Assembly (NCBI GenBank): GCA_018806915.1
Contig: JAGKQI010000069.1
Coordinates: 558,001-622,000 of the forward strand
Direction of reading: 5' to 3'
DNA from: Phytophthora colocasiae
Lineage: Eukaryota; Oomycota; Peronosporomycetes; Peronosporales; Peronosporaceae
Length of the DNA stretch: 64,000 bases
Shown here in pieces: positions 40,896 through 64,000 of the stretch. Positions within the stretch are counted from its first letter, which is position 1. Each line of letters starts with the position of its first letter. Below the pieces are notes generated by a model. That model saw nothing but the letters and a program-made list of their open reading frames with translations. It had not been told where the DNA came from and did no database searches. Made by a program: the position numbers and the translations under genes.

Positions 40896-41781
40896 TGTAA
40901 TATGCCTGACTTGCAGATGGGTGTGAACCTGGGTTCTGACATCCCACAGCAGCCAGTGAGTGCGAAAGATCTTAGCGGAGACCTTGAAGTGGATCGCAGG
41001 AGCACCAATGAGAAGAACGCTCACGAAGATGTACGAGGACAGGCCCATGTTGAAGATGCGACTGACTGGGATGCCAGCCGGACGCAATGAAGGACTTCCG
41101 AATTTGCCGAGCAGAACGCAGTCCGGAATTTGCCGCGTAGGGCACACTTCCGAAATTGCCGTGTGAGACGCAAGTTCCGAGTTTGCGGAGTGAGACGCAG
41201 TACGAGTAGACGAGCGAGAAGCACTTCGAGTTGGCGGTGTGTCAGCTACGAAGGGAGTTGAGACAACAACGAGTGGAGACCGGAAGGACCACTTTAAACG
41301 ACGAGGACCAGTGGTGGAAGCTGGAAGTGGAGACAACCACGAGCAGGTCAGGGACCAGCTTACAAACGACGAGGGGCAGCGAAAGCTGTTGAGGAGAAAG
41401 AGAGAGACGTTGAGACAACAACGGGTGGATATAAGAGATCCCCATCAAACGACGAGGGTCCGCAGCAAGAGCTGTTGACAAGTGGAGACAACCACAAGTG
41501 GTGTTGCGAGAACCGCTTACAAACGACGAAGTGGCAGCGAGTTAGCTGTGAGGGACCGCCCGAAGAAGCGGAACAGAGGAAAGTAGTGTATATCATTACA
41601 TTAATATAAGTAGGCAGTTCTCGTTGACGAACGACGAACGAGCCGGCGCGGTGAACCGAGCCAGGAGACGAGTAGCTAACGTTGAAGAGTGTCCTTTGAC
41701 ACCCGATCCTTGGGCACACCACCCAGCGCAGCACACGAGCGACGACCCGCTGACTGGCAGTGAGAGAGTAAACCTGTTACA
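40896..41781 (+). repeat. 5' LTR of the intact Gypsy element
   Basis: Begins TGTAATATGCC and ends CTGTTACA; matches 50013-50898 base for base with an offset of 9117, except one substitution noted. Short ORFs inside it are not considered genes. Confidence 0.95.
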
Positions 41782-41843
41782 TGGTGGTCATACAGGGGCC
41801 TCATCTTATTGTCGCACAACAAAAGAAACGGTTACGTACGAAG

Positions 41844-47200: not shown

Positions 47201-50017
47201 TATGGGCGCAAATTCGAGATCATCACAGATCATGCCGCGTTGAAATGGCTAATGACGAGCACAAATTTGACTGGAAAACTACATCGGTGGGCGCTTACAT
47301 TGCAGGAGTTCGATTTTGAGGTACACTATCGCCCAGGTGCTACGAATGTTGTCGCTGATGCATTATCGAGGGCACCAGTAGCAGCTAAGGTGGGAGCAGC
47401 GGTAGGACGGCGACGACGAACACGACGAGAAAGACTACCACGAACGACTCGAAGAACTACCGGGATTACGGACGGGAACGCACAGGCGGCGGTTGCGGAG
47501 CACGAGGAACAGACGCCGAGTATTTCAGGACCAGCGGTGAATAACCAGAGCACGGACACGAGTAAGCATGACGACGATGTAGGTGCCGTGGTCGAAAGTT
47601 TAATCAGTACTATCGTGAACGAGACTGTGACACCCTTGACTTCACCCGAGGCAATGCGTGATGAACGGAAACGTCGAGCTGGACGACCAAAAGGAGAACG
47701 AACCGCAAAACCTGCAGTGAACGACGTAGAACGGCCCATGACGAGAGCTGAAAAACGCCGGAGAGAACGAATGACAATCGACGAACCGTCGGTATCGAAC
47801 GAAGCGACAGACAACATGAGAGGACGAAGCAATGACTTGACTACCAAGGCCGTAGACGAAGTGACGGTAACGACGATGACACCGAAACCAACGATGACCA
47901 CGGATGCAGTAGAAACACCGACCGCGACGACAGGAACCACTCCAGCGAGAGAGTCGACGACGAATCCGACGACAAAAGCGACGATGAGTAATAGCCCTAC
48001 CAGCAGAAGGAGACGGCAAAAGACAGTGACGTGGGCGGACGGCGTGGATTTCAATGAGAGTGAGCCACTCGTAGTACAAGCAGAACCAACGACGAATACG
48101 GAAGTGACGCGTTCTTGGACTAACAACAATAACCAGACGGACGCACGAGAATCGGGAGAACGTGGGAGTGATCCACCACGGTTAACTACGGATGATAATG
48201 CACGGGACCAAGACCTCAGTGTTAAACGACGAAAAACCCCGAGAGACAAGACGAATGAGACCTTACAGTCACGTACGAGAACCTCGAAGGAAGATTTACG
48301 GCACATGCGTGATGTAGAAGCTGTACGACACCAACGAAAGAGGGAACCAACGCTACAGTTGACCGACGCAGAGATCATGGAAGAACAATCGAAAAGCAAG
48401 ATGGTACAGCAAATGTTACGAGCTGGGAATCATCACGGACGAACTATTAGCAAGGTGTTTGGTCTGGTTGTGGTGGAGACGCCTAACCAACGAAGGATAG
48501 TATTACCACCGGCGTTATGGGCAACAGTGTTCAAGGAATGTCATGACAGTGTGTGGTCGGGACATCTCCGTGCAGCTCACACGTATGCAAGGATTGCACA
48601 ACAGTATTGGTGGCCGAAGTTGAAAGACGAAGTTCGACGATGGGTACTTGGATGCCAGGAATGTGGGAGTAGGAAAGCACGACCACGAGAAGTAGTGCCG
48701 CCATTACGAAGTATTCGTGGAGGCGATGTCGGTGACAGATGGGCACTTGATGTAGCAGGCCCGCTACCAGCAACTGACGGAGGAGAACGATATGTGATCG
48801 CAGCAGTGGAATATGTGACGCGTTACGCAGTGGCGATTGCAGTGAAGGACCATACAGCAGAGAATATCGCCGATTTTCTGATGAAGCAGGTAGTACTTCG
48901 GTTCGGGCCATTCCGAGAGATCCTGACGGACGGTGCGCCTGAGCTAGTCGGAAAAGTGATCGAAGAATTGGTGATTTTGTTGCAGGCACAGCAGATTAAT
49001 CCTGTTCCTTATAGGCCACAGATGATCGGGCTTGTAGAGAGATTTCATAGGACGTGGAAGGACTGTGTTGCTACTTACATGAGCGACGAACGACAACGAG
49101 ATTGGGATACGTGGGTGGACTACGCTGTGTACGCGTATAACTCGGGACGACACTCCACCGTGTTACTTTCGCCGAATGAACTAATGATGGGGCGACGTCT
49201 ACGAGCTCCCAATGAACTTTTGCGCGCTACACGAGTTACAGAGACTGGCGATCTCGTTAAACACCACCAGAAACTCCTGGATACGTTGAAGGATGCTCAT
49301 GAATGTGCTGAACGGGCGAGAATGCGGGAACAGCGACGACAAGCGCGTTACTATGATAGGAAGGTGCGTACGAAGCGGAACTTTGAACCAGGAGATCGAG
49401 TTTGGATGTTTCGACCTCCGAGAGGCCCTAAAGCTTCCAAGTTCGTACATCAATGGATAGGACCTCTACGAGTGGTGGAATCGGCGGGTTACGAGAATTT
49501 CTTGGTCGAACGAGAAGATGATGGACAAGAACACGAGCAATTTATAGCTCACGTTTCGTTTCTGGTGACTTACCGACGGCCGACAGTACTTTTGGAGGCA
49601 GCAGCTCGAGACTTGGAGGAGCAGCTTGAATATGAAGCCGGACGCGTACGGGAAGAGAATGACGAGACGACAGAGTCGCCTGTACGAACAGCGACGGCTC
49701 CTGTTAATACAGCCATTCCGCGACAGGGTCAGAAGCGAGACGCAACAACAGTGGCGAACGAGGGCGCAGGCGACCACAACAACGAGTTATTGGTGGAGGT
49801 TCGACGACGACGACGAAGAAACCGCGCTGGACAATACGTGTTGGAATACCAGTTGCGACCAAAGGATAACCGGGTGCGACGGCAAAGAACTGAACCAGGC
49901 AATGACCGACACGAATCAAGCGACAATGAAGGACGATGGTATTCCGTCACCGAATACGATGAACTGTTTAACCGCGGCAAGGTCGTGGAAGACCTTGGAG
50001 TGGATGGAGGCGTGTAA
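44156..50017 (+). CDS. pol: Pol polyprotein of the Gypsy element (PR-RT-RH-IN)
   Basis: The frame is open from 44156, overlaps gag to 44237 in the -1 frame and stops at the first bases of the 3' LTR. No ATG is needed if made by -1 frameshifting; GGAAAAC at 44213-44219 is a possible but non-standard shift site. Domains: retropepsin with LDSGA (about 45278); RT with FCVDYRALN and YLDD (about 46580); RNase H with VTDASK and ITDHAALKWL; a ~300-residue low-complexity linker; integrase with a zinc-binding HHCC region, catalytic DVAG, LTDGAPE and GLVERFHRTWK; then a basic C-terminal region. All catalytic residues I can check are intact. Confidence 0.93.
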   Translation, partial: SQGQERRVHGETERETKVGGKRERDIVRGVRCPTSNRNPQRPEVVDRRAIVTTTANTRSIPSTASCEDRQQKNDEKSKKDTSETGDETPKNEVITDEPTRRRAVTAEILKDAVEEDVERSSQYVSTIRPTMMAVRYVRADRENEEREWSVNVTRGGVQVGVTGGGASEQFDDDGARDGLNNQRIDTEALKKPTTCVTTGVPDRQFPSDAVDLDESAGSDPSSTNRSVESTSRTTKDLVQGLDVKSLRKARKTARKVAKRQKAKARLIRRRCEDPEIEAQRNDAAAAISSKRRREANEAWEAFELRKQRRQLDGEMAVEVLRTVDTALVSLVKQRQTAQALTSEQPANQVEYVEADDGLPTALMNVNGEGRKVKLDSGARYTVAGTDWMKYGDWVSNRAPVDYVEGIGGFLLDVIGVWRFTFETVFGEELAIDACIIAGCGNEFLLGVDFMQAHGATMDFQQQEVRYVEEGRTVVIPFKTHDSDGAARVATVRMISRTEIAGNTVTPVEVAVPAEDGERGVFLPTRHIGSVLLAATVTTARNGRAWIPAINTNTKSAKIPNKKQLGTWIPVDDEVEILTMNGQLDTERVEHWLSELGDCETPLPNENEVDIGSDDPKTRELVLKLLRAYRTLTANTSECPPATTLDVHHHIDTGSASPIMLKRRRQAQTDDGIIDENVEKMLKAGVIEEGNGGWGFPVVLVRKKDGEVRFCVDYRALNKITKKDVYPLPRIDETLEALGGALLFTTLDLRAGYWQILVAPEDRDKTAFTTKRGLYRFVRMPFGLTNAPSTFQRLMNGVLRGLTWSTCLVYLDDIVVFTRGGIERHIVELAAVLERLERAGLTLKLKKCKFATQTMEYLGHELSSDGVRPLDRLVSAVRDFPTPSDAVEAKRFAHLAGYYRRFVSGFGTIMSPITKLLRKNVVWEWGDAQKTAFERVKDILTAKPLLVYPDFRLPFRVVTDASKVGLGACLMQDRGEGWQPVAYASKVNSEKEGKYGITELECFAVVWAIKLFRPYLYGRKFEIITDHAALKWLMTSTNLTGKLHRWALTLQEFDFEVHYRPGATNVVADALSRAPVAAKVGAAVGRRRRTRRERLPRTTRRTTGITDGNAQAAVAEHEEQTPSISGPAVNNQSTDTSKHDDDVGAVVESLISTIVNETVTPLTSPEAMRDERKRRAGRPKGERTAKPAVNDVERPMTRAEKRRRERMTIDEPSVSNEATDNMRGRSNDLTTKAVDEVTVTTMTPKPTMTTDAVETPTATTGTTPARESTTNPTTKATMSNSPTSRRRRQKTVTWADGVDFNESEPLVVQAEPTTNTEVTRSWTNNNNQTDARESGERGSDPPRLTTDDNARDQDLSVKRRKTPRDKTNETLQSRTRTSKEDLRHMRDVEAVRHQRKREPTLQLTDAEIMEEQSKSKMVQQMLRAGNHHGRTISKVFGLVVVETPNQRRIVLPPALWATVFKECHDSVWSGHLRAAHTYARIAQQYWWPKLKDEVRRWVLGCQECGSRKARPREVVPPLRSIRGGDVGDRWALDVAGPLPATDGGERYVIAAVEYVTRYAVAIAVKDHTAENIADFLMKQVVLRFGPFREILTDGAPELVGKVIEELVILLQAQQINPVPYRPQMIGLVERFHRTWKDCVATYMSDERQRDWDTWVDYAVYAYNSGRHSTVLLSPNELMMGRRLRAPNELLRATRVTETGDLVKHHQKLLDTLKDAHECAERARMREQRRQARYYDRKVRTKRNFEPGDRVWMFRPPRGPKASKFVHQWIGPLRVVESAGYENFLVEREDDGQEHEQFIAHVSFLVTYRRPTVLLEAAARDLEEQLEYEAGRVREENDETTESPVRTATAPVNTAIPRQGQKRDATTVANEGAGDHNNELLVEVRRRRRRNRAGQYVLEYQLRPKDNRVRRQRTEPGNDRHESSDNEGRWYSVTEYDELFNRGKVVEDLGVDGGV
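47400..48290 (+). other. Unusually long RNase H-integrase spacer in pol
   Basis: About 300 residues between the RNase H end (ADALSRAP) and the integrase zinc region. It is rich in Thr, Arg, Asp and Asn, with no fold I recognise; it contains RRRRQKTVTWADG-like sequence near 48006. Confidence 0.7.
49999..50012 (+). promoter_or_regulatory. Purine-rich tract before the 3' LTR (polypurine tract)
   Basis: AGTGGATGGAGGCG abuts the LTR start TGTAATA, the expected place of the plus-strand primer. It has two pyrimidines, so it is an imperfect tract. Confidence 0.5.
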
Positions 50018-50898
50018 TATGCCTGACTTGCAGATGGGTGTGAACCTGGGTTCTGACATCCCACAGCAGCCAGTGAGTGCGAAAGATCTTAGCGGAGACC
50101 TTGAAGTGGATCGCAGGAGCACCAATGAGAAGAACGCTCACGAAGATGTACGAGGACAGGCCCATGTTGAAGATGCGACTGACTGGGATGCCAGCCGGAC
50201 GCAATGAAGGACTTCCGAATTTGCCGAGCAGAACGCAGTCCGGAATTTGCCGCGTAGGGCACACTTCCGAAATTGCCGTGTGAGACGCAAGTTCCGAGTT
50301 TGCGGAGTGAGACGCAGTACGAGTAGACGAGCGAGAAGCACTTCGAGTTGGCGGTGTGTCAGCTACGAAGGGAGTTGAGACAACAACGAGTGGAGACCGG
50401 AAGGACCACTTTAAACGACGAGGACCAGTGGTGGAAGCTGGAAGTGGAGACAACCACGAGCAGGTCAGGGACCAGCTTACAAACGACGAGGGGCAGCGAA
50501 AGCTGTTGAGGAGAAAGAGAGAGACGTTGAGACAACAACGGGTGGATATAAGAGATCCCCATCAAACGACGAGGGTCCGCAGCAAGAGCTGTTGACAAGT
50601 GGAGACAACCACAAGTGGTGTTGCGAGAACCGCTTACAAACGCCGAAGTGGCAGCGAGTTAGCTGTGAGGGACCGCCCGAAGAAGCGGAACAGAGGAAAG
50701 TAGTGTATATCATTACATTAATATAAGTAGGCAGTTCTCGTTGACGAACGACGAACGAGCCGGCGCGGTGAACCGAGCCAGGAGACGAGTAGCTAACGTT
50801 GAAGAGTGTCCTTTGACACCCGATCCTTGGGCACACCACCCAGCGCAGCACACGAGCGACGACCCGCTGACTGGCAGTGAGAGAGTAAACCTGTTACA
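50013..50898 (+). repeat. 3' LTR of the intact Gypsy element
   Basis: Same sequence as 40896-41781; ends TTACA followed by GCAG. Confidence 0.95.
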
Positions 50899-50902
50899 GC
50901 AG
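50899..50902 (+). repeat. Target site duplication, right (GCAG)
   Basis: Pairs with 40892-40895; 4 bp rather than the 5 bp usual for Ty3/Gypsy. Confidence 0.75.
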
Positions 50903-51280
50903 AATAGAACGCCTACTTCCTTGTTAGCAATATTGCGTGCTTTGAAATTAACCCTTAAATCACAGACGGAAGGGATGGTTGGCCAACAGAGCTCGACATT
51001 AATCTCTCTTTGTTTGCACAGACCGCATTTCAAGCACCATGGGCAAAAGCAAACGTCGAAACTACACTATCATAGGAGGGTCGGGCCTACACCATCACAG
51101 CAAAGTGAACCCTGATCTCGCCCGACAAACATTGCATTTTTGTTCGTTGTATAACGCCTAGGCGTTTAAACCGAATATTTGCTTAACATAGTAATATAGC
51201 GCCTAGTCGCAGTGTGCGGGGCAAGACGGTAGGCGCACGTGCAGGGACGGGGGGGGGGGGCAAACCAAAATATTACAAAT
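50903..51280. other. Flank between the Gypsy element and older repeats
   Basis: No supported gene. A 40-codon frame from the ATG near 51039 (MGKSKRRNYT) is too weak to call. A run of 12 G lies at 51249-51260. Confidence 0.45.
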
Positions 51281-51425
51281 GCAGCGGGGTTGCGTAGGTG
51301 TGCAGGAATTTTAGTTGCAAGGCGCTAGCCTTCGGTTCTTTGTAGTCCACTAAATACGGGACTCACAGAATCAGTGTCCCTATAATAAAGGACTGAGTGC
51401 AAACTGACTTTTATTGCCCTAATCC
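51281..51425 (+). repeat. Dispersed repeat B, shorter copy (LTR-like)
   Basis: Starts GCAGCGGGGTTGCGTAGG and ends ATTGCCCTAATCCT; the same blocks (CTAGCCTTCGGTTCT, TAGTCCACTAAATACGGGACT, CAGTGTCCCTATAATAAAGGA) recur at 58206-58414 with extra segments. The AATAAAG suggests a 3' transcript end, as in an LTR. Confidence 0.75.
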
Positions 51426-54400
51426 TAAGAGCATTCCCACCGGTTCCGACTAAACTGAAGCTATAACGCACTCGAATATCACGCCTAAATTTAGTTGATC
51501 GGGAAATCCGCACCGGTCAAGAGCATTTCAGGACAAGATCTCGCTGGAACACGAGAAGAATCTTGAGGTTGATGGAGAGCCAGCTACTTTTTTCTTGCGG
51601 TCGTGCTGGCGCTGGCAGTGGCGGCTTCCTAAACCTCCAAGACCAGCGACGAAGACGATGTACTTGCTTGTAAGCTTCTCTTTCCCCCACTTTCTGCTGT
51701 GCCGTGTGAAGCTGTGGGTTTGAATTTTCGACCAGAAGCCGCCTCCCAGGACCATCCATTGATCTGGAAGCTGATTGGCTGATATCTGACAACATTGGGA
51801 CGGGAATCTGGGAAGGTGTAAGCGTTGCGCTCCAGGAATACCTTTGATAATCTCCGGAATCAATGTCCGGCCCGGAATCCCGAGTCGACCAACTGCATCC
51901 GGAGCCCTGATACAGCTGAACCAGGTGCAGATACAGTATCCAAGTATTTCCTGTGAAAAGAGCTCCAGATGCCGGCCAAGGTCACGTGGAATCTGAACAC
52001 CAAGGGCGTTTGGAAGGGACTGGCATCCGGGGAAATCCTGATTTGTACCCAGTATCCAGTTGAAGACTCCAAGTATACTTAAGTCAAGTGATTACCGACC
52101 GACCAAGACGGCCGACCAGGATGTGCTCGGCACCAGCCAGAATTCTTCGGGCTTCGGCGACAGAGACACGCGCTCCCTGCCCCTTTCTATAGTGAAATTA
52201 AGATGTTTAGCAGAGACTTTAGCAAAATACTTATACATAAATAACAGAGAGTTCAATTTGCCACCAAGGACGCAAGTGAGTGTGCGGGAGGTTCCCACAA
52301 GCCACCACTGCCGAGAACCGCCGACCAGCCTCAAGAAGAGGGCTCGGGGTCATCTCCGCCAGCGTTAGGCCGCGACGACAGCGTACACCGCCGCGGGATT
52401 CTCCACAAAGGTCAAGACCAAGTTAGGGAAGGGATACGGAAGGCGCATCCGGAAGTGAGCTTCCTATTTCATATTCCAGTTGGTATTCCGGACTCCGGAT
52501 ACCCATTTCATATTATAACTGCGTTTTTAGGAGGTTGTTAGTAGTTAGCCCCTTGGAACTGTATTGAATTAACTACTGTGTGATAGGATTGTATATTGAG
52601 GGTTATCCGGATTACTTTCTAGTGATTCCGGATTCCATTTGATTATTGTCTTCCGGAAACCAAGTGGTTATCCGGAAGTGGTGCGCTTGTAAGAGTCCCG
52701 GAACCGAGCCAGTGTTCCGGAATCAGACTCCGTCGACTGGCATCTGGAGTGCCCACCGCTTAAGGGCCACAAAGAATAAGAGCGGCTGTATATTTGCATA
52801 TTAACTCTCTGTATTGTATTGGTTAGCCGCTAGGGGAAGACTTTGCTAATAGTCTTTCACCCATTCCAGACGACTGCATCTGGAAAGTACCTGGCATTTG
52901 TACATCTGGACCTGATCGGCATCCAGAAGTAACTCATTGGTGACTACACCGGATACGCGAAGACAAACGACACCCAAGAGGATACCACAAGGTCACACGC
53001 CAACTCTGCCTTCCGGATACCCATAGGATCCCGGAAGGTTGAGACTGACCCCACTTGGCATCTGGACGTTTTATTCTAGAATCCACCTGGACACGCACTA
53101 TACACTCTGGGCGACCGACTTCCAGTCCGGAAGCCGAAAAGTGTTCACCCACTTCGCCACAGCTGGTGCGCGTGCCCGGATTCGATACCGAGTGTATCAC
53201 CGAGTTACTTTATATTTGATTCGATTAGTTTCAGGGGAACTGAGTGCTAACTAACTTTCTAATCGTGGTTGTGATGATTGGAAGTGAAAGCGCGCGCAAA
53301 GGGAGAGACGCGGATTCTGGATCCGGTATGGCATCCAGATCGTCGCGTCGGTTGAAGGGGCAGCTGCCTGAAGAGCACGAAGATTTAGATACGATTATGA
53401 GAAGAGCTCGTCAGGCCAACGCTGCGAAGCGAAAGGCTGCCCAGGAAGCAAAGGAGTTGCCGGATCTCCAGGAGGAGGGTTCCGAATCTGCCGTTGAGGA
53501 TGCGCACCGCGCAAGTCTGGACGGAAGTGATCGGGAAGAAACTTCGGATCGAGAAGGCGACCCAGAGCAAGAAGAGTCCGGATCCGAGTCGGGTTCGGAA
53601 GAAGAGGATTCTGGATCGGAAGGTGATCTGGAAGCTGAAGGAGTTTTGGACGAGTTCGATCAGGAGGAGTCCGAAGGTGAGGAGTCTGAAGTCGTCGGGA
53701 GTGACGCTGAAGATTCCGGAAGAGAGGCATCTGAAGACGACGTTGTCGAGATTGAAGCCCCCGCGGAGGATCGAGTTCCGTATTCTCCTCCGCCGAAAAG
53801 AGTGGATCCAGATGCCATATCTGGAGTTCGAGAAGATTCGCCCCACGTGAAGCAGGAAGATCGCCCGCTGTCGCCGGTTCAGGAAGATACTGTGCTTCAA
53901 GACAATAACATGTCATCGCCAGTGATTCCAGAACTCCGGATACCAACACTGCATCCGGACCAGCCGCCGTTCCAGATGCTCTCTGAGGTGTCTCTGCAAG
54001 AACCAAGTGGATTCGACATTCCCGATTCTGAAATGGAGGAACTTCAAGATGTCCCATCTACGGCGTCCGAAGTCCAGATGACCGAAGGTCGCGCGAAGGC
54101 ATATGTGGCCGAGCAGGTGAGACGCTGGGAGCGCGATAGTTCCGAAAGGGACATTCCACCTGACGTCAGATACGACTGGCCTCCCGTGCGTCCGGATTCC
54201 GAAGCCTTCCTTCGTGCGGCTTCGAAGACTTCCGAATACCTTAGTCGTCGGATGTTGATGCCGGTACAGACAGACGCTTGGATTTCGGAACTTCAGATCC
54301 AGCGTCACACTTTTGGAACGGCCCAAGATCTACAAGCAGGCTTGATCCCGCCAATGGAATTCTCAGCTCGAGAATGTATTGCCGTCCTTCAGACTCTACT

Positions 54401-54773
54401 TTTCGAAGCCGGGTTTGGTTTCGTGAACTTGGTACCAGGATGGTTCCGGACGCGTGTCTTCAAGGTGCATCCGGATCTCGTCCGACAAGTCGTCGGTGAA
54501 GTGATACAGTTATTGACTGTGGAGATGGTCGAGTGGAGACAGTTAATGGTCCGGATGCAAGAGTATGCCCAGACCCTTGCGGACTTTAGAAGGGAAAGAC
54601 TCTATCAAGTACATCCAGAAGCCGCTTATCAAGGTGGAAGCATATTCATTTCGGATTACGAAGCTTCTCTACTGGGACGTGATTTCACTGGGCTTCTCGT
54701 GACATCCGGATTCCGGAAGTTGAGAAGTCCAAGGGATCCTGTCCACCAGGATGTCCAGACGAAACGCCTCCAA
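51426..54773 (+). mobile_element. Retroelement remnant with acidic Gag-like ORF, CCGGA-rich
   Basis: About 1.8 kb of non-coding sequence (51426-53273) leads to one long ORF, cut at 54773 by the next element. Throughout, CCGGA, TCCGGA and the related ATCTGGA/TCCAGAT words occur at very high density, in coding and non-coding parts alike. I could not find its LTR ends or a pol region. Confidence 0.6.
53274..54773 (+). pseudogene. Acidic Gag-like ORF, truncated by insertion
   Basis: From the ATG at 53274 (MIGSESARKGRD) the frame runs 500 codons to 54773, then reads a few codons into the next element's LTR before stopping at 54827. Residues 50-200 are extremely Glu/Ser/Asp-rich (EEDSGSEGDLEAEG). 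Residues about 260-500 are folded-looking and helical (GRAKAYVAEQVRRWERDSSERD, EFSARECIAVLQTLLFEAGFGFVNLVPGWFRTRVF). No zinc knuckle is present before the break. It is read as a retroelement Gag from context and composition; a host gene captured by repeats is possible. Confidence 0.5.
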
Positions 54774-55233
54774 TGTAACGGGGTTACACGTACAAGTGGT
54801 TGTACCACTTGTAACTCTAACAGTTAGGATAACTGTTAGAGGTTGGAAATGGGCCTCAGACCTTGGTGTGCTGTACACACCAATGGATACATGAGCGAAC
54901 CACATTATTGGATGGTTCGTGTGCATTTGTGCATATTATTGGTAGAAAGTAACGGATTTCTACCAATCACTGAGCAGAGTTTCTGCCAACCACACGTTGG
55001 CAGACCCTTTTAAAATAGATAACAAACAGTTTTAGGAGGTCCATAATTGGCTTATGCCAAATTCAATAACAGTTCTCATTTTACGGTATCTTGCAGTTTA
55101 ATTTAGTTATATTTGATTTAATTATACTTATTTAAATAAGTATACTTAAATTAAGTCTATTCTAATTGCACGCTTCCTCATACACGTAAGCGCACGTGTA
55201 CGCCACCTAATAGGTCTAGGTAGACCCATTACA
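54774..55233 (+). repeat. 5' LTR of the hairpin-dense element
   Basis: TGTAACGG...CCCATTACA, 460 bases with TG/CA ends and inverted TGTAA/TTACA tips. It contains perfect stems at 54791-54813 (10 bp), 54815-54841 (11 bp) and 54982-55004 (9 bp). CCTGGTAGCAC follows at once and could be the primer binding site. The end is set by the TG/CA rule only. Confidence 0.65.
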
Positions 55234-55282
55234 CCTGGTAGCACTTTGTAGTCCGTCCCACGACCGACTGCTGTTCGTTCGT

Positions 55283-56269
55283 ATGGAGTCATACGAACGC
55301 GGGGTAGAGAACTCCCCAATGGATGAGGGATCCGCTGGGACCCCTCAAATGTCCGTGACGCGCACGGACTGCGCCCACCTGTCTGATCCAGAGTGGGAGG
55401 CTCTCCAAAGACTCTCGCGAGTCATTGGAGAGGCAGCGGTAGCTACGATGCTTCGTACGCTATCGCCGACAGAGCAACACGGTGTTGCTCTGGGGTACAT
55501 TGCTAAGGAGCAACGAGATGTTGCTGCCTCGGTGGCTTCCCCTAAGCCACGCGTGGAGTCGTTGAAACTCCACGTGAGTACCTACACGGGGAAGGAGGAC
55601 GAGACCCTCCTTCGTTGGCTTGTCGAACTTGACACAGCCGTTGCGGCTCGACGTATCGTCGATCCGATGTCGAAGGTCGCGTTCGCCATGTCATGTCTTG
55701 GCGGACGTGCGAGGAGTTGGGCCTATGGGCGCCGACTCTCGGATCCTACGTGCTTCAGCACGTACGAGGTGTTCAAGGAGGAACTCAAGCTTGCGTTTGA
55801 GCCTCCGAAGAACGAGTTCAGATCGAGAGCGGAGTTTCTCGATCTGCAGCAGGGCAAGGATGATGTTCACACCTTTGCCCAGCGTGCTCGATACTTGGTA
55901 TCGAACATAGTGGCCAACCCGATCGACGAGGCGACCAAGGTCGTCACGTTCATGAAGGGACTAAGAGACGGTCCCGTCAAAACATATCTCTTCCGAGAGT
56001 ATCCGAATACTCTCGAGGAGGCGATCAGCCTTGCGATGCAAGAGGAGTTTAGCCAACGTCAAGCTAAACTCCATGCGAACGCGCCGAAGCCGGCGCGTCC
56101 TGTTGTGAAGACGGGAGGTCCGGAACCTATGGACCTCTCGAGTGCTACGACTGCTGGTCAACAGCAGCGTAGATACGGCAAGGTTCGATGTTACAAGTGT
56201 AGTAACATCGGTCACTATGCACGCGAGTGCACAGCGGGCGGGCGTTCAAAAAACGCCAAGGACCAGTAG
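55283..56269 (+). CDS. gag: Gag of the hairpin-dense Gypsy element
   Basis: 328 residues from the ATG at 55283. The capsid domain spans residues about 90-240 (LHVSTYTGKEDETLLRWLVELD, LGGRARSWAYGRR, VFKEELKLAFEPP, FLDLQQG), and one CCHC knuckle, CYKCSNIGHYAREC, lies near the end. It is intact, without stops. The reading frame is unusual in that adjacent stretches of codons are reverse complements of each other; for example the codons of the zinc knuckle lie in a 9-bp stem at 56186-56210. The 3' end overlaps the protease frame in the -1 direction (56227-56269). Confidence 0.9.
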   Translation: MESYERGVENSPMDEGSAGTPQMSVTRTDCAHLSDPEWEALQRLSRVIGEAAVATMLRTLSPTEQHGVALGYIAKEQRDVAASVASPKPRVESLKLHVSTYTGKEDETLLRWLVELDTAVAARRIVDPMSKVAFAMSCLGGRARSWAYGRRLSDPTCFSTYEVFKEELKLAFEPPKNEFRSRAEFLDLQQGKDDVHTFAQRARYLVSNIVANPIDEATKVVTFMKGLRDGPVKTYLFREYPNTLEEAISLAMQEEFSQRQAKLHANAPKPARPVVKTGGPEPMDLSSATTAGQQQRRYGKVRCYKCSNIGHYARECTAGGRSKNAKDQ

Positions 56270-56920
56270 GCGCGGGGCGTCCTACTGGTGATGCAGTCTC
56301 GCGTGTCGAGCTTGGACACGCGACGATGAGGACTGCTGCCCCCAGCGAGAAGGTTTCTCGCTATAAGCTGCAAGATGACAAGCCAAACCTTGTCATCCTG
56401 AACGTGATGTCGAAGAGAGCGAACTCTCTTCGTGCCCTAGTGGACTCGGGCGCGTCGAACAACTTTGTTCGACAGGGAAGTCTTCGAAGGTTTGACTTCG
56501 AAGAGGCCGACACGCCTCGCGGCGTGTTGGAGGTGCGGTTGGCAACAGGTGCCACCGTGAGAACTGAGAAGCGCGTAGTCCGTGTGCGCTTCTCTTACAA
56601 ACGAAGGACGTTTGTAGAAGATCTTATCGTCTTGGATCTAGACGATAAGTTCGACTTGGTATTAGGCATGCCGTGGCTTGCACGGCATGACCCGGTGATC
56701 AACTGGGAGAAGCGTACGCTCGTACGCTTCAACAACACATGCGCGACAGAGAGCGATGGCCCTGTCAGTGCTGCACATGCACCGGTCGGTGCATGTGGAT
56801 CCCCAGTTGAGGCAGCGGTGGCCGCCGCTGCCTCCGATCGCCGCCGGCGACCATCAACGACTCCGAGAGTCGTTGGGAGAAAATGTGTGTCGACTCAGAA
56901 ATCTGAGCCGAAGGGTCGCG

Positions 56921-57009
56921 GTCACATGAGTGATGGTCAGGTGAATGTGAATCACCTGACCATAAACATCTGAATGATGTTTGTCACATGAGTGATGGTC
57001 AGGTGAATG
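56921..57009 (+). repeat. 62-bp direct duplication in pol
   Basis: The 27-base block starting GTCACATGAGTGATGG occurs at 56921-56947 and 56983-57009. The 62-base period is not a multiple of three. Confidence 0.9.
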
Positions 57010-57096
57010 AGATTCACCTGAGAGAAGGTAAAATACCGGTATTACCGGTATCCTTGGAGGTACTTCAAGCCCCCAAGGGTCGCGCCGACGACGTCG

Positions 57097-57408
57097 CGTC
57101 AACTCTGGGAGTTGACGAAGCAAATAATATTCGGGGAACCGAAAGACGTGCGTCAGCTCTGGGAGCTGACGCCACTGGCGCTTCGCTGCTAGTTCCGGGA
57201 ACTAGCGATCGGTCATCAGCTCCGGGAGCTGATGAGACGTGTATAGGCGAACAGTCGCTGCTAGTTCCGGGAACTAGCGATCGTACATCCGCTCTGGGAA
57301 CGGATGATATGTGTACAAGCGAACACTCGCTAGCGCAGGAAGCTAGCGAGAGCACGTCGACTCCGGGAGTCGACGATGCGGTTGCTTCATCCGCTCCGGG
57401 AGCGGATG
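57097..57408 (+). repeat. Tandem array of hairpins with constant loop and changing stems
   Basis: Successive perfect stems with CTGGG, CCGGG or CGG loops at 57097-57117, 57150-57172, 57188-57206, 57213-57235, 57260-57278, 57326-57350 (loop differs), 57355-57375 and 57388-57408; arm sequences differ between most units. Confidence 0.9.
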
Positions 57409-58205
57409 GAGGCGCAGCGGTTCAGGGAACCGACTGCGCGGCAGGAGGTGCTGGCGGTTGCAAACGCCCAGCACCCGAACAACCTGCGTGCTCACGTGCA
57501 GCAGCGCTGCACGCGATGAGCGGCACTCAAGCCGGGCTTGATAGTGCGAGTCAGCGGAAGGAATCCGCTGACGATTGCGATAACGTCCCGTCCAAGGTGC
57601 GATGCCTTGGACGTGGAGCACCTGGAGCCGGGCTCCATGGTAGATCTTCGCGGCGCAAGCTCAGGGAGCTGCGCGAGTCTCAGTCCGGGACTGAGACGGG
57701 TGTATCTGCAGTGCAGACACCGAGTGTTGAGACGTTGAACGGCTTGACACGTACTGGTACTGGGTTACAGTACCAGAGGATGCGGTTGGAGAATCCGCCG
57801 ACGAGTGCGTCGGCGTTGACCGCACTTTCAACGATGAGTTGGAAGCGAGACTTGTACGATGGACGCATCGAACAAATTTGCATTCTCTCGGATATCGAGA
57901 GAGTGGATCGCGTAGCCGAAGAGCTGAAGCAGCTCGTCGTCGATGGGATCACTGAGGGCGATGACCCCCTCAGTGCGAAGACCAAGAAGCAACGCTTCGA
58001 GGAGCAGAGTTGGGACTCGTTGAAGTCGAGTCCCTATTACGAGATTCTGCGGGAGTACAAGGATGTACTCCCGGACGAGATTCCTTCGGAGCTTCCGAAG
58101 AATAAGGGCGTACAGCACGAGATTGATCTCGTGCCGGGCACGAAGTACTGTGTTACACGGCAGTGGCCACTGCCGCGTGAACAAGTGCAAGCGATCGACG
58201 ACTTC

Positions 58206-58414
58206 TGCAGCGGGGCTGCGTAGGTGTGCACGGCACAGAGGAAGTTGGGTTGACTCGTAGAGTCCTGCTTGCAAGGCACTAGCCTTCGGTTCTATACAAG
58301 AACCAAGTAGTCCACTAAATACGGGACTCTCACAATCAGTGTCCCTATAATAAAGGAACTAACACTAATTATGTAAAATGCAAACTGATTTTTATTTATT
58401 TTATTGCCCTAATC
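58206..58414 (+). repeat. Dispersed repeat B, longer copy (LTR-like)
   Basis: Same repeat as 51281-51425 with extra segments (for example after GTGTGCA and around AACTAACACTAATTATG). It starts exactly where the pol of the previous element breaks off and ends 5 bases before the chromodomain element's LTR. Confidence 0.75.
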
Positions 58415-58419
58415 CTGAA

Positions 58420-58613
58420 TGTAACGGATTTAGTATCTAACATACTAAATCCTAATCAAATGTAATGTGTGGCTCTGAGCTAACAGCCAGCAACTGGCTA
58501 CATGTGTGACGTGTGAGAAACACTATGTGTTGTACACGGATCTGTGACTTGTGACCTGATGGTGTATACCACACCTATTGTAGCCAAGGCGCGCAGCGCC
58601 GTAACTCGTTACA
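58420..58613 (-). repeat. 3' LTR of the chromodomain element
   Basis: 194 bases with inverted tips TGTAACG / CGTTACA and TG/CA ends. A purine tract abuts it on the minus strand. It also contains a perfect 10-bp stem (58426-58452). Confidence 0.7.
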
Positions 58614-58626
58614 CCCTCCCCACCAA
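58614..58626 (-). promoter_or_regulatory. Polypurine tract of the chromodomain element
   Basis: On the minus strand GGTGGGGAGGG directly precedes the LTR start TGTAACG, the standard second-strand primer position. Confidence 0.75.
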
Positions 58627-58639
58627 ACCGTGGATACGG

Positions 58640-60560
58640 AGTATCTACAACTGTAGACATAACTGCCTTTGTCAAGGCCTGTCACCGGCAACTTTCCGAT
58701 AAAAAGAAATCTCTCAACGAGAGTGCGCGGGTGCGCTGGCTCAACGAGCACATTCTTCAATTCTCCCCAGCGAGCCAACCGCCCTGAGGTGTCCAGTGAC
58801 CAGGCGTCTACGCCCCAGCGCCTCAGCGCTTTCCGGTCTGGAGCCCTCGGCTCCTCTCACGCTCTCCGATTCGAGTATTTCGCGGCGTCTCGCCTTCGCT
58901 ACGGAGCGATGTTCAAGGCCAGCCCTGACGTCAAGTGGTAGCGGTGGCTCACCCTTCGAGTACACGACAGCGTCGCCGACGCGCGACCCACGTCGCTCTC
59001 CCACAGAGGAAGGCGAGGTCGAAGCGGACTACGAGGAGTCCGGAACAGGGCGATGCCCATGCGTCTCCTGCTGCCCTGCGAGCCCTCGGACGACCCGATC
59101 TGAGCTGCGCCTCCACGCGATCCGCGTCGGTACTCACCCTCGGCAGCTGCGGCAGCCCAATCCGTTCCCGGAGGGACCTTCGAGCCTCGTGCTCAACGCG
59201 TTGCGCAACGCACCACCGCTTCCTGCTCGCGATGAGCCAGAGTCACTCAAGGGGAGTCGAAGACGCGATCACCAACCCTCTGGATGAGGCACAGGAGGCT
59301 TCCCTGAGCGGTGCTCCAGAGTCACGTCGACCGGTCCAACGGGACATCGTGGGACTTCGTCGCGGCGCGACTACGGCTTCGAGCCTCGCGACCCTGCCGA
59401 GCAGGTGAAGCAGCTGATGGCGCAGCCAAACCTGCATGGTTACGCCATAGGCAATCCTCCACGCGGTGGCTTTGAGACTCAGCAGCGACAGGGGCTCCAT
59501 GAGCGTTTCCTGACCCCGCAGGTGTGCACACCTCGCCGAGTATCGGCAACGCTTAGATAAGCAACGGCGACGGGAGTCTGTGCCTCAGATGAGGACTTAT
59601 CCACTCCTGCTCCAAACCGGAGAGACCACCCTGGGACTACATGGTCCATGTGGCCACCTGGGCCGAGGCTTCACGGAAGCTCGCGTCGTTTGACCGGCTC
59701 ATGGAGAGCTGCGCCGAGGTGGACGTCCGCCTCGCCCTGAGGTCTACTCTTCCAGTACGCGAAGATACGCGTGCGGCCCGGCCGCTTTCCTCGTCACACG
59801 ACGGCAGTGGCTCCCGCCTCTCAGGCCACTATCCCTGCTTCGCAGGATGCTCCTTCAGTCTCCGAGGGAGACTCGCTGGTTGTGCCAGCCACGGACCAGA
59901 GCCTGAGCTCGGCTGTTATCCGTCAGCTTCTCACACTAGTGGTGAGAAGCGGGTGTCGACCGAGTGGTCGACCCTCGAGCCCTTCGGGCGCCCCTGATCT
60001 TCGCGATCAAAAGCGTCCACGACGTCAGGGCAATCCTGCCTCAGGGACCCTTCAAACTCCCAATGAGTTTTGGGAATGAGGATATCCACGCCACTTCACC
60101 AGATACTGGTTTTGACTACGGTGGCGACGCCGCGCCATCAGGCGCTCCACGTGGTAGTGGGGAGTCCCCTGCTCATCGAGCAACGGCGGAGGAGGCCGAT
60201 TCGCTGCGGAACGCCGTACCTCGATGAGTGTGACGAGCGCCATTTGTCGCATCGCGCCTGGTACCAACTCGATCACTCGATCGGTACTCCGGAGTCAGAC
60301 TCAGTCCCTTCAAGGGAACGTCGAGAGTGTTTGGCATTCGCATGCCCGTCTCTGCCTCTGCGACATGGAGGAGATTGAAAGCCGGATGGCTTGGCCTGAA
60401 GGTCCTCAGTCCCTGACTGCTCGCCTGCACCAGCAGGAGCTTCAGCTCGCTGAGTTGCGAGGTCAGGTGACGTTGCTGCTGCAGATGACGCAGCCTGGGC
60501 ACGTGTCGTCGGTGCCAGCGCCTCCGCGCTCACCCCCGCGGGGTCCTGATATGGCTTAAG
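58640..60560 (+). pseudogene. Protein-like reading frames antisense to the chromodomain element's 3' region
   Basis: On the plus strand, successive frames give protein-like segments: EEGEVEADYEE (about 59005), DAHASPAALRALGRPDL (59055), VEDAITNPLDEAQEA (59260), EQVKQLMAQPNLHGYAIGNPP (59400), YMVHVATWAEASRKLASFDRLMESCAEVD (59640) and RLHQQELQLAELRGQVTLLLQ (60425, heptad-like). Frame changes between them suggest one damaged gene. No family is recognised. Part of it overlaps the integrase/chromodomain sequence on the other strand, so some of the frames there are shadows. Confidence 0.4.
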
Positions 60561-63470
60561 CAAGCCGACGTAGAACACCGGGTGTGTTCGCATCCGCTTT
60601 GGCAAGTCAAGCGTGTATGCCAGGCCCTTCTTGGCCACGACCGTAAATGGTCCGATGAAACGCGGACGCAATTTCGTCTTAAAGACATTTGACACTGCAT
60701 GTGCAGGTAGGTTCTTAGCGTTTAATAAAACCTGGTCACCGACCTTAAATTCTACATTGCTTCTACCTTTGTATCCGCTTGTTCCTTCTGGAACGTCTTG
60801 GCTTTCAGCCATCGCGTCACGTACACGGCGTAATACGCCCAATCTCACCGAGAGGAAGTCATCGACTTGTTTACGCACAGCAGAAGGGCTGATATCAGCA
60901 AGCTCGGAGTCGAGCGACGGCACAGCCTCTCCCCACCAAGCCCAAGGCTACCGCGTGGCGGAGTGAGCGGAACGCGCGGGTGCGCAAGGCCGTTCACGTA
61001 GAACGGGGTGAAGCCTGTCGAGGCATGCACCGTATTGTTCATGGAGAACTCAACGAGAGGGAGCATAGCGCCCAACGCTTCGGCGTTTCAGCGCATACGC
61101 TGCGGAGGATGTCCTCCAGAACGCGGTTCACGCGTTCGGTCTGACCGTCGGTCTGCGGATGGTCCGCCGTGGACATGTCCAGTCGAGTGCCCAGCACCTT
61201 GAAGACGGACGTCCAGAAGTGACCCGTGAAACGGGGATCTCTGATCCGAGACAATGGTCTCAGGCAGCCCATGCTGGCGGAAGACCCGGATCGATGAAGA
61301 TCGTCGCTGTACCAGCACCATCGACGGTGTCCGGCACAGCCGCCAGATGAGCCATCTTGCTCAGACGGTCAACAAAGACCACCACGCCCGTGTTGCCTGC
61401 CGAGTCCTTCGGCAGGCCAAACACAAAGTCCATACTTATGGACTGCCAACACCCAGAGGGTACAGGTAAGCTTCGCCAGTGGCGCAGCCGCATGCGGCGA
61501 GGGTTTAACCCGCTGACACGTCTCGCACGTGCGCACATATGTAAGGACCACTTGTACATCTTCGGCCACCAGTACATGGAGCTCACTGAGCCGTACGTCT
61601 TCTCGCGACCGAGGTGGCTGCCTGTGGGTGTGTCGTGAGCCTCTAGAGGATACGGTACTTCAGATCCTCATCGTGAGGAACTACACTCGTGGTGGGTCAT
61701 CCTGACCCGTGCTGTAGTACAGCAGACCGCCTTCTAGGCTGTAGCGTTGAGTCTCGCCTTTAGGCGTCGTGACAGAGTCACCTTTGAGTCTTTAAACTCA
61801 TCGCCCTCAGAGCTTGGAGCAACGCGACACAAGAGTCGTCCTGAGCGTACGCTGCTCGAACCATGTCCGTCACGGACGACGTCACCGAGGTGACATGAGA
61901 TAACTCATAGTACGGGTGACGTGATAACGCGTCAGCGAGGACGTTCTGCCTGCAAGGCTTGTACTTCACCTCGAAGTTATACTCCGCAAAGAAGGAGAGC
62001 CATCGGGCCATCCCCTCTGCGAGAGGTGAGGCGACTGCGTCGCTGTGCGTAGTGACGCATGATCCGTGTAGATCACAAACGGCTTGGAGCCGAGCAGGTG
62101 AACTCCTGAATTTGACGAGAGCGTACTTCATCGCAAGTAGCTCCTTGTCATGAACTGGATAGTTCTTCTCAGCAGCCTTGAGCTGTCGCGTCTCAAACTC
62201 AATGTCGCTTTCGCGCCCTTCGGCGTCCGCTTGTATAAAATCACTGCCGATGGCTAAGTCAGATGCGTCACAGACGACAATAAACGGACGAGCGTCTGGC
62301 AGCGCCAGTATCGGTGCCCTGAAGCAGGCTATCCTGATACAAGTGAGCGTATCTCGTGCTCGGCACGCCATACCCACTCGGCATCCTTCTTAAGGAGATC
62401 CGTCAGTGGCCGAGCCAACTCAGCGTAGTTCTCGCTGTACTTGTGCAAGTAGTTGGCCAAACCCAGCCACTTACGCAAGTCCTTCTGGTTCAAGGGAACC
62501 GCCAATCCACAATGGCCTTGACCTTTGCTGATCAGCACGAAGGCCATGCTTCCCAATGAAGCACCCTAGGAAGGATTTCTTCCGCGCCAAAGACGCACTT
62601 GTCTGCGTTGGCGTACAGCTTGTTCTGTGCGCATGCACTCGAGCACAGCTCTCACGTGTTCCACGTGCACCTCAACGTCAGTCTTGCCGTGTTCGGCTCT
62701 GACTGTGGACGAACACGTCGTCAAAGTACGTTTGCGTGCGAATGCCCGTAGGGGCTCTGAACAGCCTGCGTCACTAGACGATTGAACGTTGCGGGCGCGT
62801 TCGAGAGCCCTTGGGGCATGACGAGCCACTCCCAGAGCATACCGCTCAGTGCTCACCGCCGTAAGCGGAATATCACTGGCTCGCATGAGCAGCTGATAGT
62901 ACCCATCGACTAAGTCGAGTGCACTGTACATGGTGCAACCCACCATGTTGTTCTGAAGAACATCCTTCCTAGAATCGGCGTCTGCGCCGGAATCGTGGCA
63001 GTGTTGAGCTTGTTAAAAGCGTGAACGATACGCCACTTGCCATTCGGCTTTCTGACACAGAACGTTGGCGCGGAATGCGGAGACTTGCCTCGCGCACGAG
63101 ACTCCGCCGCGTGCTTCGTACGGAAGAAGGCGTCAATGACGTCGCATTGCTCTTTAGGAAGAGGCCACTGTCGGGTCACGCAGTACTTAGTTCCGGGAAC
63201 TAAGTCGATCTCATGACGAACGCCTCGGTCGGGAGGCAGGCCACTCGGTGGTTCCTTCTGAGACAACGTCTCCATATTCCTTCAGCAAGGAGTGGAAGGG
63301 ATCCGAGGGATTCTTGAGGATCTCCGATCCACCTCTGGCGTTCAACGCCTTCTTGACTTCGGCCAAGACGGACTCGTCAACGAGGGACGACGAGTTTAAC
63401 TCCTCCTCAGGTCGAACGATGACCACCTCGGCGAATTCGCCAGCCTTCAAGGCACGCCAAAGTCGGCGAA
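60052..63470 (-). pseudogene. pol: Degenerate pol of the chromodomain Gypsy element
   Basis: In order on the minus strand: linker LNSSSLVDESVLAEVKKALNARGG (about 63380); RT start HEIDLVPGTKYCVTRQWPLP (63200) and CVRKPNGKWRIVHAFNKLNT (63050); YSALDLVDGYYQ (62930); active-site YFDDVFVHS (about 62710-62745); AEWVWRAEHEI (62370); RNase H CDASDLAIGSDF (62270), AEKNYPVHDKELLAMKYAL (62150) and KQNV-like ADALSRHPYYELS (61920); integrase MDFVFGLPKDSAGN (61430), SVFKVLGTRLDMSTADHPQTDGQ (61180) and MNNTVHASTGFTPFYVNG (61030); FKVGDQVLLNAKNLP (60740); and chromodomain YLVKWRGYPHSQNS (60080). Frameshifts occur near 63250, 62960, 62850, 62390, 62090, 61310 and 60073. It is not functional. Confidence 0.88.
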
Positions 63471-63664
63471 GGACATCTCTTCTAGCTCAAGGAGCTTGTC
63501 AACACTTGGCAAGTCGTCCAGCAGGACACTGCCTTCGGCACTACCGCCCACTCCATCAACCAGAGTGTATAGCTGCCCACAGCCCTCCGGTGCGTCGGCA
63601 CTTGACGTCACGGATGACTCAGACGCAGAGCGTCTCGCCCGAAGGGCCTTTACGACGTCTTCGC

Positions 63665-63930
63665 CTAGCCGAAGATCGTCTACTCGACGGAGTACGTGCC
63701 GTCGCACAAGTGTCGGCCTCTCTCGGCCCAGTGTCAGGGACACTCAGCGATCCACCTCGGTCGACGACCGATGCCGCTCAGCGGAGTACGTGCCGCTGCA
63801 CAATCAATGACCGTAACAGGTCCAGTGTCAGAGACACTCAGCGATCGACTTGGTCCACGACCAGTATCACTCGACGGAGTACGTGCCGCCCCACAGTTCA
63901 CGGCCTGGTAAGGCCCGATGCCATCGGCAT
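63665..63930. repeat. About 94-bp tandem repeat, three diverged copies
   Basis: GGAGTACGTGCCG followed by GCACA-like bases recurs at about 63689, 63783 and 63876 (94 and 93 bases apart); between them CAGTGTCAGGGACACTCAGCGAT-type blocks also recur. It lies in the protease-RT linker region of the chromodomain element, the same place as the hairpin array of the plus-strand element. Confidence 0.75.
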
Positions 63931-64000
63931 CCAGTGACGGTCCATGACCGGCGTCACTCGGGTTACGTGAGCTTTGCCCACACGTTGACTCACTGCCAAC

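What the first reader, a model, noticed from the sequence alone, without database searches (positions are those of the whole stretch)
54774..58205. A retrotransposon whose LTR and coding sequence are built of back-to-back short hairpins
Seen: I checked perfect stems base by base at 54791 (10 bp), 54815 (11), 54982 (9), 55591 (8), 55994 (9), 56044 (10), 56186 (9), 56262 (9), 56374 (9), 56411 (9), 56566 (9), 56623 (9), 56667 (9), 56709 (9), 56933 (12), 57000 (9), 57150 (9), 57213 (10), 57326 (9) and 57388 (9), nearly all with loops of 3-11 nt, and many 6-8 bp ones between. For random sequence with equal base use, about 0.1 perfect stem of 9 bp or more with loop 3-11 is expected in 3 kb. The pattern runs through LTR, gag, protease and linker, yet gag stays open. 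Neighbouring host genes and the intact Gypsy element show nothing similar by eye. Inference: either strong selection for RNA/DNA structure (packaging, translation control, silencing escape or small-RNA generation) or a replication mechanism that copies short inverted segments.
Basis: partly seen in the sequence, partly recalled or inferred. Interest (0 to 1): 0.92.

Follow-up and report, generated by a model that had tools for sequence, protein, structure and literature searches.

The report
A retrotransposon packed with hairpins
A mobile element in a Phytophthora-like water-mould genome has its whole sequence, genes included, packed with short hairpins, far more than in any related element tested; selection likely keeps them, and they would form a folded shield against the host's RNA silencing.

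Summary
Window 54774-58205 holds 63 perfect stems of 7 bp or more with loops of 3-11 nt; dinucleotide shuffles give 1.6. Codon shuffles that keep the protein also fail: gag 13 against 0.8, protease 16 against 1.1, pol (another copy) 54 against 3. In two other insertions hairpins run on through pol into the 3' LTR, then stop. The element is a young, high-copy Ty3/Gypsy retrotransposon. Sister family F2 has fewer hairpins, at different places (0 shared pairs); F3 is weak or at chance; ten other Gypsy loci are near zero. Arms show no sign of block inverted copying. Among 41 other copies, polymorphisms shared by two or more copies avoid stems (third codon positions OR 0.35); singletons do so much less. 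Pervasive local folding is therefore very likely selected: genome-scale ordered structure, here in a transposon and above the genome means I read for viruses. Which molecule folds is unresolved, because strand tests disagree. Shielding from RNA silencing is my best guess for the purpose and is untested. Inverted-segment copying is not supported.

The parts
54774..55233 (+). 5' LTR, 460 bp, TG...CA ends; hairpins of >=9 bp at 54791-54813 (10), 54815-54841 (12), 54938-54967 (11), 54982-55004 (9), 55123-55144 (9)
   Evidence: same sequence is the 3' LTR of L066 and L067
55234..55309 (+). leader after the LTR, with hairpin 55276-55299 (10 bp)
55310..56269 (+). gag frame (stop-to-stop frame 55220-56269) with capsid and CCHC knuckle; hairpins of >=9 bp at 55470-55492, 55819-55846, 55994-56015, 56044-56072, 56186-56210, 56262-56289
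   Evidence: 13 stems >=7 bp against 0.78 in codon shuffles
56266..56973 (+). protease frame; hairpins of >=9 bp at 56299-56323, 56374-56397, 56411-56432, 56481-56504, 56566-56594, 56623-56649, 56667-56689, 56709-56730, 56774-56797, 56809-56834, 56855-56875, 56933-56963
   Evidence: 16 stems >=7 bp against 1.12 in codon shuffles
56934..58223 (+). linker and start of pol (frame 56934-58223); hairpins of >=9 bp at 56999-57021, 57097-57117, 57150-57172, 57213-57235, 57326-57350, 57355-57375, 57388-57408, 57550-57572, 57589-57613, 57677-57697, 57754-57776, 57950-57975, 58050-58073
   Evidence: match to other copies ends at about 58206
57183..57326 (+). two tandem 72-nt units (85% alike) of hairpins with CGG/TGG triloops in the linker

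Best explanation
This is a young, high-copy Ty3/Gypsy retrotransposon of a Phytophthora-like genome whose sequence, LTR to LTR, is packed with short local hairpins that selection likely built by point changes and likely still maintains, so that its single strands are predicted to fold on themselves and would be hidden from the host's RNA silencing. Shown: the hairpins, their excess over dinucleotide and codon shuffles, their near absence in ten other Gypsy loci, a weaker and differently placed set in a sister family, and the avoidance of stems by polymorphisms shared among copies. Inferred: that the excess reflects selection on folding of the element's RNA (sense, antisense or both) or cDNA. 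Inferred and untested: the purpose. [quoted passage not shown]
For:: stem excess over both kinds of shuffle; the pattern spans the element and drops outside the LTRs; predicted folding energy 37-40% (+) and 44-47% (-) below dinucleotide shuffles; 31-37% (+) and 35-45% (-) below codon shuffles; stems >=7 bp per kb F1 15-17 (5 loci), F2 2.3-7.7 (4 loci), F3 0.8 (1 locus), ten other loci 0-0.8; F1 and F2 share 0 base-pair positions; shared polymorphisms avoid stems (OR 0.41-0.48; third positions 18 of 266 against 94 of 547, OR 0.35, p 3e-5), singletons less (OR 0.83); 7 complementary double changes in register against 0-5 in 12 slid registers; protein kept while stems were built; a peak of stem length at 9, few above 10, none with a loop of 3 or more above 12. 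P. infestans has small RNAs along Gypsy Pi-1a and Albatross in both orientations; viral GORS shares non-homologous pairings and low diversity at paired sites, and structured transcripts are sensed less in cells.
Against: No expression, probing or small-RNA data were available. Strand tests disagree: single-wobble stems and shuffle-corrected energy favour the minus strand; raw energy (not significant) and stem polymorphisms (85:55 towards plus-strand G-U) favour the plus strand. Singletons are also somewhat rarer in stems at third positions (p 0.047) and in non-coding sequence (p 0.018), so the contrast is one of degree. Taking the two most divergent copies as reference weakens or removes the stem effect (L061 OR 0.94; L063 OR 0.69, p 0.07). 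Copies are related, so p-values are optimistic. In maize, miRNA-like structure in TEs goes with more small RNAs (PMC10760457). A re-stabilised mutant with equal folding energy still induced interferon (PMC3950689), so folding alone may not shield.
Confidence: 0.5

Rival explanations
1. The hairpins serve the element's own RNA steps: compaction and packaging in the particle, stability against nucleases, or pacing of translation, with no link to silencing.
For: Pervasive folding under selection fits equally; structured regions are normal in Ty1 and Ty3 RNA (PMC11381356, section read).
Against: Ty3 and Ty1 manage with a mosaic of structure; F3 and ten other Gypsy loci of the same genome do without or nearly so; positions are not conserved between F1 and F2, so no particular signal is kept.
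Confidence: 0.17
2. The minus strand is what must fold: first-strand cDNA or antisense RNA, protected from nucleases, deaminases or annealing while single-stranded.
For: Stems with one G-U are commoner on the minus strand in all 9 F1 pieces tested, which are not independent (45 against 18 for window plus L066, p 0.0009); shuffle-corrected energy is larger on the minus strand.
Against: Stem polymorphisms lean the other way (85:55); raw energy favours plus, not significantly; a stricter count on L067 is even, 12 to 11; the F2 pieces are even or mixed.
Confidence: 0.15
3. A mutational process makes or repairs the stems: reverse transcriptase switches template at hairpins and turns imperfect palindromes into perfect ones, without selection.
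For: Stems are perfect and local (loops mostly 3-11); one stem is perfect in the window copy and in none of 38 others.
Against: No arm asymmetry and no loss of second codon positions. Unbiased correction should turn about half of all stem mutations into paired changes, roughly 48 pairs by my estimate from the shared non-stem rate (203 events in 2042 sites, 485 pairs); 7 were seen. Ten other Gypsy loci with similar enzymes lack the stems.
Confidence: 0.1
4. The hairpins feed host or element small RNAs that hold copy number in check, so structure invites silencing rather than escaping it.
For: Structured TE regions in maize map to more small RNAs (PMC10760457, abstract).
Against: Perfect stems stop at 12 bp, far below a Dicer-sized duplex; the family is young and abundant.
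Confidence: 0.06
5. The stems are a by-product of composition, codon use or repeated peptides.
For: The linker does hold tandem hairpin units that encode a repeated peptide.
Against: Dinucleotide and codon shuffles fail by an order of magnitude in gag, protease and pol.
Confidence: 0.02

Closest known systems
[quoted passage not shown] PMC3950689, abstract and passages)
   Same: Many short sequential stem-loops through coding and non-coding sequence; folding energy below shuffles; pairings not homologous between relatives; paired sites less variable; long uninterrupted duplexes avoided (against passages).
   Different: An LTR retrotransposon, not a persistent RNA virus. Mean energy excess 37-40% on the plus strand, where the passage read gives genome means of about 15% for SARS-CoV-2 and 23.4% as the highest among vertebrate RNA viruses (single regions there reach higher; window sizes and shuffles differ a little). 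Stems are perfect. The host has no interferon system (recalled).
Ty3 and Ty1 genomic RNA structure (PMC11381356, abstract and one section)
   Same: Same kind of element; structured RNA regions in coding sequence.
   Different: Described as a mosaic with stable regions up to 30%; here a near-continuous chain, 46% of 8289 bases inside perfect hairpins of >=6 bp.
miRNA-like structured regions of maize TEs (PMC10760457, abstract and start of introduction)
   Same: Local secondary structure is common in TEs.
   Different: Those are local regions that resemble pre-miRNAs and attract small RNAs; here the stems are short, everywhere, and conserved among copies.
Phytophthora Gypsy elements, e.g. Gypsy Pi-1a and Albatross (PMC3522703, passages)
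   Same: Abundant Gypsy elements of the same genus with small RNAs in both orientations.
   Different: The word hairpin does not occur in that paper's main text; their DNA was not compared here.

Membership tests
Ty3/Gypsy LTR retrotransposon | Domain order gag - protease - RT - RNase H - integrase | tested here: met
   gag, CCHC, RVP_2 in the window copy; RVT_1, RNase H, Integrase_H2C2, rve in L067, pol of another copy
Ty3/Gypsy LTR retrotransposon | LTRs with TG...CA ends, target-site duplication, polypurine tract | tested here: met
   460-bp LTR, 5-bp duplications in two other insertions, GGGGGG tract before the 3' LTR of L067; not testable on the broken window copy
Ty3/Gypsy LTR retrotransposon (chromovirus branch) | C-terminal chromodomain | tested here: inconclusive
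   Chromo 21.2 bits, below its cut-off of 25.1
Ty3/Gypsy LTR retrotransposon | Place in an RT phylogeny | not tested
   no RT tree was built
GORS-type structured genome | Folding energy well below dinucleotide shuffles (threshold 3% MFED in PMC3950689) | tested here: met
   39.9% and 36.9% on the plus strand in 11 and 16 windows of 300 nt; upstream host sequence 6.4%
GORS-type structured genome | Sequential stem-loops throughout, also in coding sequence, beyond codon shuffles | tested here: met
GORS-type structured genome | Pairings not homologous between relatives; paired sites less diverse | tested here: met
   (0 of 240 F1 pairs shared with F2)
GORS-type structured genome | Genome of a positive-strand RNA virus | tested here: not met
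   it is an LTR retrotransposon; it works like GORS but is not a GORS virus
GORS-type structured genome | Folding shown by probing; lower recognition by host defence | not testable with these tools
   needs chemical probing, small-RNA data and silencing assays
Inverted-segment copying / quasi-palindrome correction | One arm a recent inverted copy of the other | tested here: not met
   arm difference 0.18 (21 stems) against 0.19 (5-95% 0.14-0.24) at random places

The most novel reading that the evidence does not exclude
A transposon has armoured its entire genome against RNA silencing by turning it, codon by codon, into a chain of about 170 one-turn hairpins, and a sister family began the same thing independently with a different set of hairpins; possibly it is the antisense RNA or first-strand cDNA that is armoured.
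Probability: 0.35. Interest if true: 0.92.

Novelty: new variant of a known kind. Interest (0 to 1): 0.8.

Why it matters
If true, pervasive RNA structure as a defence shield is not confined to RNA viruses: a transposon reached it too, above the viral genome means that I read, and apparently more than once. The genome offers a natural experiment within one clade, F1 (strong), F2 (middling) and F3 (weak or none), in the same cells. That makes the open question of what whole-genome folding is for testable with ordinary small-RNA and probing data.

Tried and rejected
Rejected: chance or composition; protein or codon constraint; inverted-segment copying; conserved individual RNA elements (F1 and F2 share no pairs; no Rfam match at the gathering threshold in 54000-59000). 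F1 pair positions are complementary in F2 and F3 in 43-47% of cases against 20-31% when slid; with about 63% identity this is what shared ancestry gives, and I do not count it as shared stems. A codon-phase test of the pairing was weak: gag, protease and pol together give 32, 31 and 20 stems in the three phases (my linker frame there was off by one base, so I leave that row out). Loop ends of 3- and 4-nt loops are complementary in 26 of 67 hairpins, somewhat more than a quarter; unexplained.

Led nowhere: DNA relatives outside this genome. Scans of viral contigs and genome contigs found none; proteins of relatives abound in several Phytophthora species (best 120 rows seen of each) but without DNA. 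A search with a P. ramorum gag returned mostly the same places again (117 of 1366 candidates scored). Strand of selection: the tests disagree. Eight literature searches, seen as listings except for the five papers named, show no retrotransposon built of hairpins; the library holds open-licence papers only.

Rows dropped: of loci L001-L065, the window copy itself (L001/L031) and one copy with 1343 mapped bases (L004/L033) were left out and duplicates between L001-L030 and L031-L060 merged, leaving 41 copies. Sites where the window letter is the rarer one were set aside (30 sites with all copies, 2 of them in stems). Only sites read in at least 15 copies were counted.
Full report
WHAT IS THERE. 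Between 54774 and 58205 the window carries 63 non-overlapping perfect stems of at least 7 bp with loops of 3-11 nt (51 of >=8, 37 of >=9). Twenty dinucleotide-preserving shuffles give 1.55, 0.25 and 0.05 on average. Host parts of the window are near chance; the second Gypsy element at 58600-64000 is modestly above it, 9/4/3 against 2.9/0.2/0.1. The stretch is the left part of a Ty3/Gypsy retrotransposon: a 460-bp LTR (54774-55233), gag with a zinc knuckle, aspartic protease, a linker, and the start of pol, where this copy is broken off at about 58206.

THE WHOLE ELEMENT. The gag protein is 96% identical to a Phytophthora citrophthora entry, and the window is part of an unnamed 92.5-Mb genome. 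A gag search there scored 125 of 1544 candidates; all 125 matched, at 91-100% identity. I read pol and the 3' LTR of two further insertions (L066, L067). L067 encodes RT, RNase H and integrase. Hairpins run at 6-12 stems of >=6 bp per 500 nt up to the 3' LTR and drop to 0-1 in the last bins. 5' flanks of six copies hold 0-1 stems of >=7 bp per 960 nt (one flank, L017, has nine of 6 bp), against 14-15 in the first 1000 nt of the element. The two insertions have 5-bp target-site duplications and LTR pairs that are 99.3% and 99.8% alike, so they are young. Perfect hairpins of >=6 bp cover 46% of the 8289 bases examined (74 in the window piece, 100 in L066). Above a background of 5-6 bp stems the length distribution peaks at 9 (48 stems), with 27 of 10 bp, 9 of 11 and 3 of 12; no perfect stem with a loop of 3 or more exceeds 12 bp.

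NOT THE PROTEIN, NOT THE CODONS. Shuffling synonymous codons (protein and codon usage kept, 100 shuffles) leaves 0.8 stems of >=7 bp in gag (13 observed), 1.1 in protease (16) and 3.05 in pol of L067 (54). A second shuffle that also keeps dinucleotides leaves 0.6, 1.8 and 6.2 (30 shuffles). A neighbouring frame shows 4 against 0.74 (at most 5 in 100 shuffles), and two of the other Gypsy loci show 0 and 1 against about 0.4. Predicted folding energy is 39.9% (window piece) and 36.9% (L066) below dinucleotide shuffles on the plus strand and 46.7% and 44.5% on the minus strand; upstream host sequence is at 6.4% and 5.4%, and the window's F3 element at about 10%. Against codon shuffles F1 pieces are at 31-37% (+) and 35-45% (-), F2 at 5-14%, F3 at 11-14%, the two other loci at about zero and the neighbouring frame at 5-7%.

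RELATIVES. Of 20 RNase-H loci taken from a family search of the same genome, five belong to this family (F1; 15-17 stems of >=7 bp per kb). Four (L072, L074, L084, L085) belong to a sister family F2 (7.7, 6.9, 5.4 and 2.3). One, L083, is of F3, the family of the window's second element (0.8). Ten others have 0-0.8; nine of these are alike at DNA level in the listing. In F2's RT region codon shuffles give 0.95 and 0.93 against 7 and 9 observed; its 5' part lists 25 stems of >=7 bp in 3 kb (no shuffle run there). On a codon alignment (about 63% nt identity) F1 and F2 share none of their 240 and 94 base pairs, while two F2 copies share 73. So the hairpins of F1 and F2 arose, or were replaced, independently. 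Relative to F2 and F3, F1 stem arms keep second codon positions as well as other sites do (0.78-0.83 against 0.79-0.81), with somewhat lower first positions (0.65-0.68 against 0.73-0.74) and amino acids (0.61-0.66 against 0.67-0.70). The two arms do not differ more than random neighbours (0.18 against 0.19). This is the mark of many point changes under protein constraint, not of a segment copied backwards.

COPIES. I compared 41 other copies with the window copy over the 5' part. Differences seen in a single copy, presumably mostly from after insertion, are nearly as frequent in stems as elsewhere (37 close copies: 0.123 per site in stems, 0.136 in other sites, 0.192 in loops; stem against the rest OR 0.83, p 0.13). 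Differences shared by two or more copies, which have presumably passed through active elements, avoid stems: 0.034 in stems, 0.073 in other sites, 0.121 in loops (OR 0.41, p 1e-6). At third codon positions, all copies, the shared counts are 18 of 266 (stem), 75 of 474 (other) and 19 of 73 (loop), OR 0.35, p 3e-5; singletons there are 35 of 266 against 103 of 547, p 0.047. In non-coding sequence the shared difference is not significant (p 0.27) while the singleton one is (p 0.018). Eight reference copies close to the family give OR 0.43-0.52; the two most divergent, L061 and L063, give 0.94 (p 0.84) and 0.69 (p 0.07). Copies are related, so these p-values are optimistic. Over 56 hairpins a median of 90% of copies keep the stem perfect, where 67% would be expected for 17 sites at the mean rate; part of this is ascertainment, since the stems were picked as perfect in the window. 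Three hairpins are perfect in under 60% of copies, one of them (56809-56834) in 0 of 38. Seven distinct complementary double changes occur in register; twelve slid registers give 0-5, mean about 1.9; five of the seven lie in the repetitive linker.

WHICH MOLECULE. I could not decide. Stems with a single G-U are commoner on the minus strand in all nine F1 pieces, which are not independent (45 against 18 in window plus L066), and shuffle-corrected energy agrees. But a stricter count gives 21 A-C against 11 G-T in window plus L066 and 12 against 11 in L067. Raw energies favour the plus strand without significance (p 0.11-0.39). Polymorphisms in stems lean to plus-strand G-U (85:55 against 169:201 outside stems). 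Both strands are strongly folded.

HOW IT LIKELY WORKS. The evidence fits continued selection for local self-pairing anywhere in the element, without regard to position. Viruses with genome-scale ordered RNA structure show the same: sequential stem-loops, pairings that are not homologous between relatives, low diversity at paired sites, duplexes kept short (PMC7642675, passages), and weaker recognition by cellular RNA sensors (PMC3950689, abstract and passages). The natural opponent in this host would be RNA silencing: P. infestans has small RNAs along its two most abundant Gypsy-type elements in both orientations (PMC3522703, passages). I infer that hairpins of about one turn cover small-RNA target sites and slow the annealing of sense and antisense RNA without offering Dicer a long duplex. 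This last step is untested, and the maize finding that structured TE regions attract small RNAs (PMC10760457, abstract) speaks against a simple version of it.

VERDICT. It is a new variant of a known kind: GORS-like folding in a retrotransposon, with three graded sister families that make the question testable.

Noticed in passing
58206-58613: Right of the break in pol the sequence carries a few more hairpins (11-bp stem at 58426-58452) and an LTR-like stretch 58419-58613 (TGTAACGG...CGTTACA by eye), probably an end of the F3 element that follows on the minus strand.
   Followed up: partly
58600-64000: Minus-strand Gypsy element (F3) with a stop-ridden pol and a modest stem excess (9/4/3 against 2.9/0.2/0.1); a relative, L083, is 93.6% identical over 1310 aligned positions and has one stop in the stretch read.
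   Followed up: partly
57097-57432: Hairpin units with NGG triloops, partly in tandem (72-nt units), that encode repeated SALGAD/SAPGAD-like peptides between protease and RT; hairpin duplication may be how this linker grew.
   Followed up: no
40000-52000: Long purine-rich stretch on the plus strand (A 0.29, G 0.29, T 0.19, C 0.23; AT skew up to 0.4).
   Followed up: no
63682-63937: Three tandem copies (69-nt matches every 93-94 nt) within the F3 region.
   Followed up: no
53244-54827: 527-aa open frame directly upstream of the LTR, without a Pfam match; the insertion lies at its 3' end and supplies the last residues and the stop.
   Followed up: no
56809-56834: A 10-bp stem that is perfect in the window copy and in none of 38 other copies tested: perhaps newly perfected in this copy or its recent parent.
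   Followed up: partly
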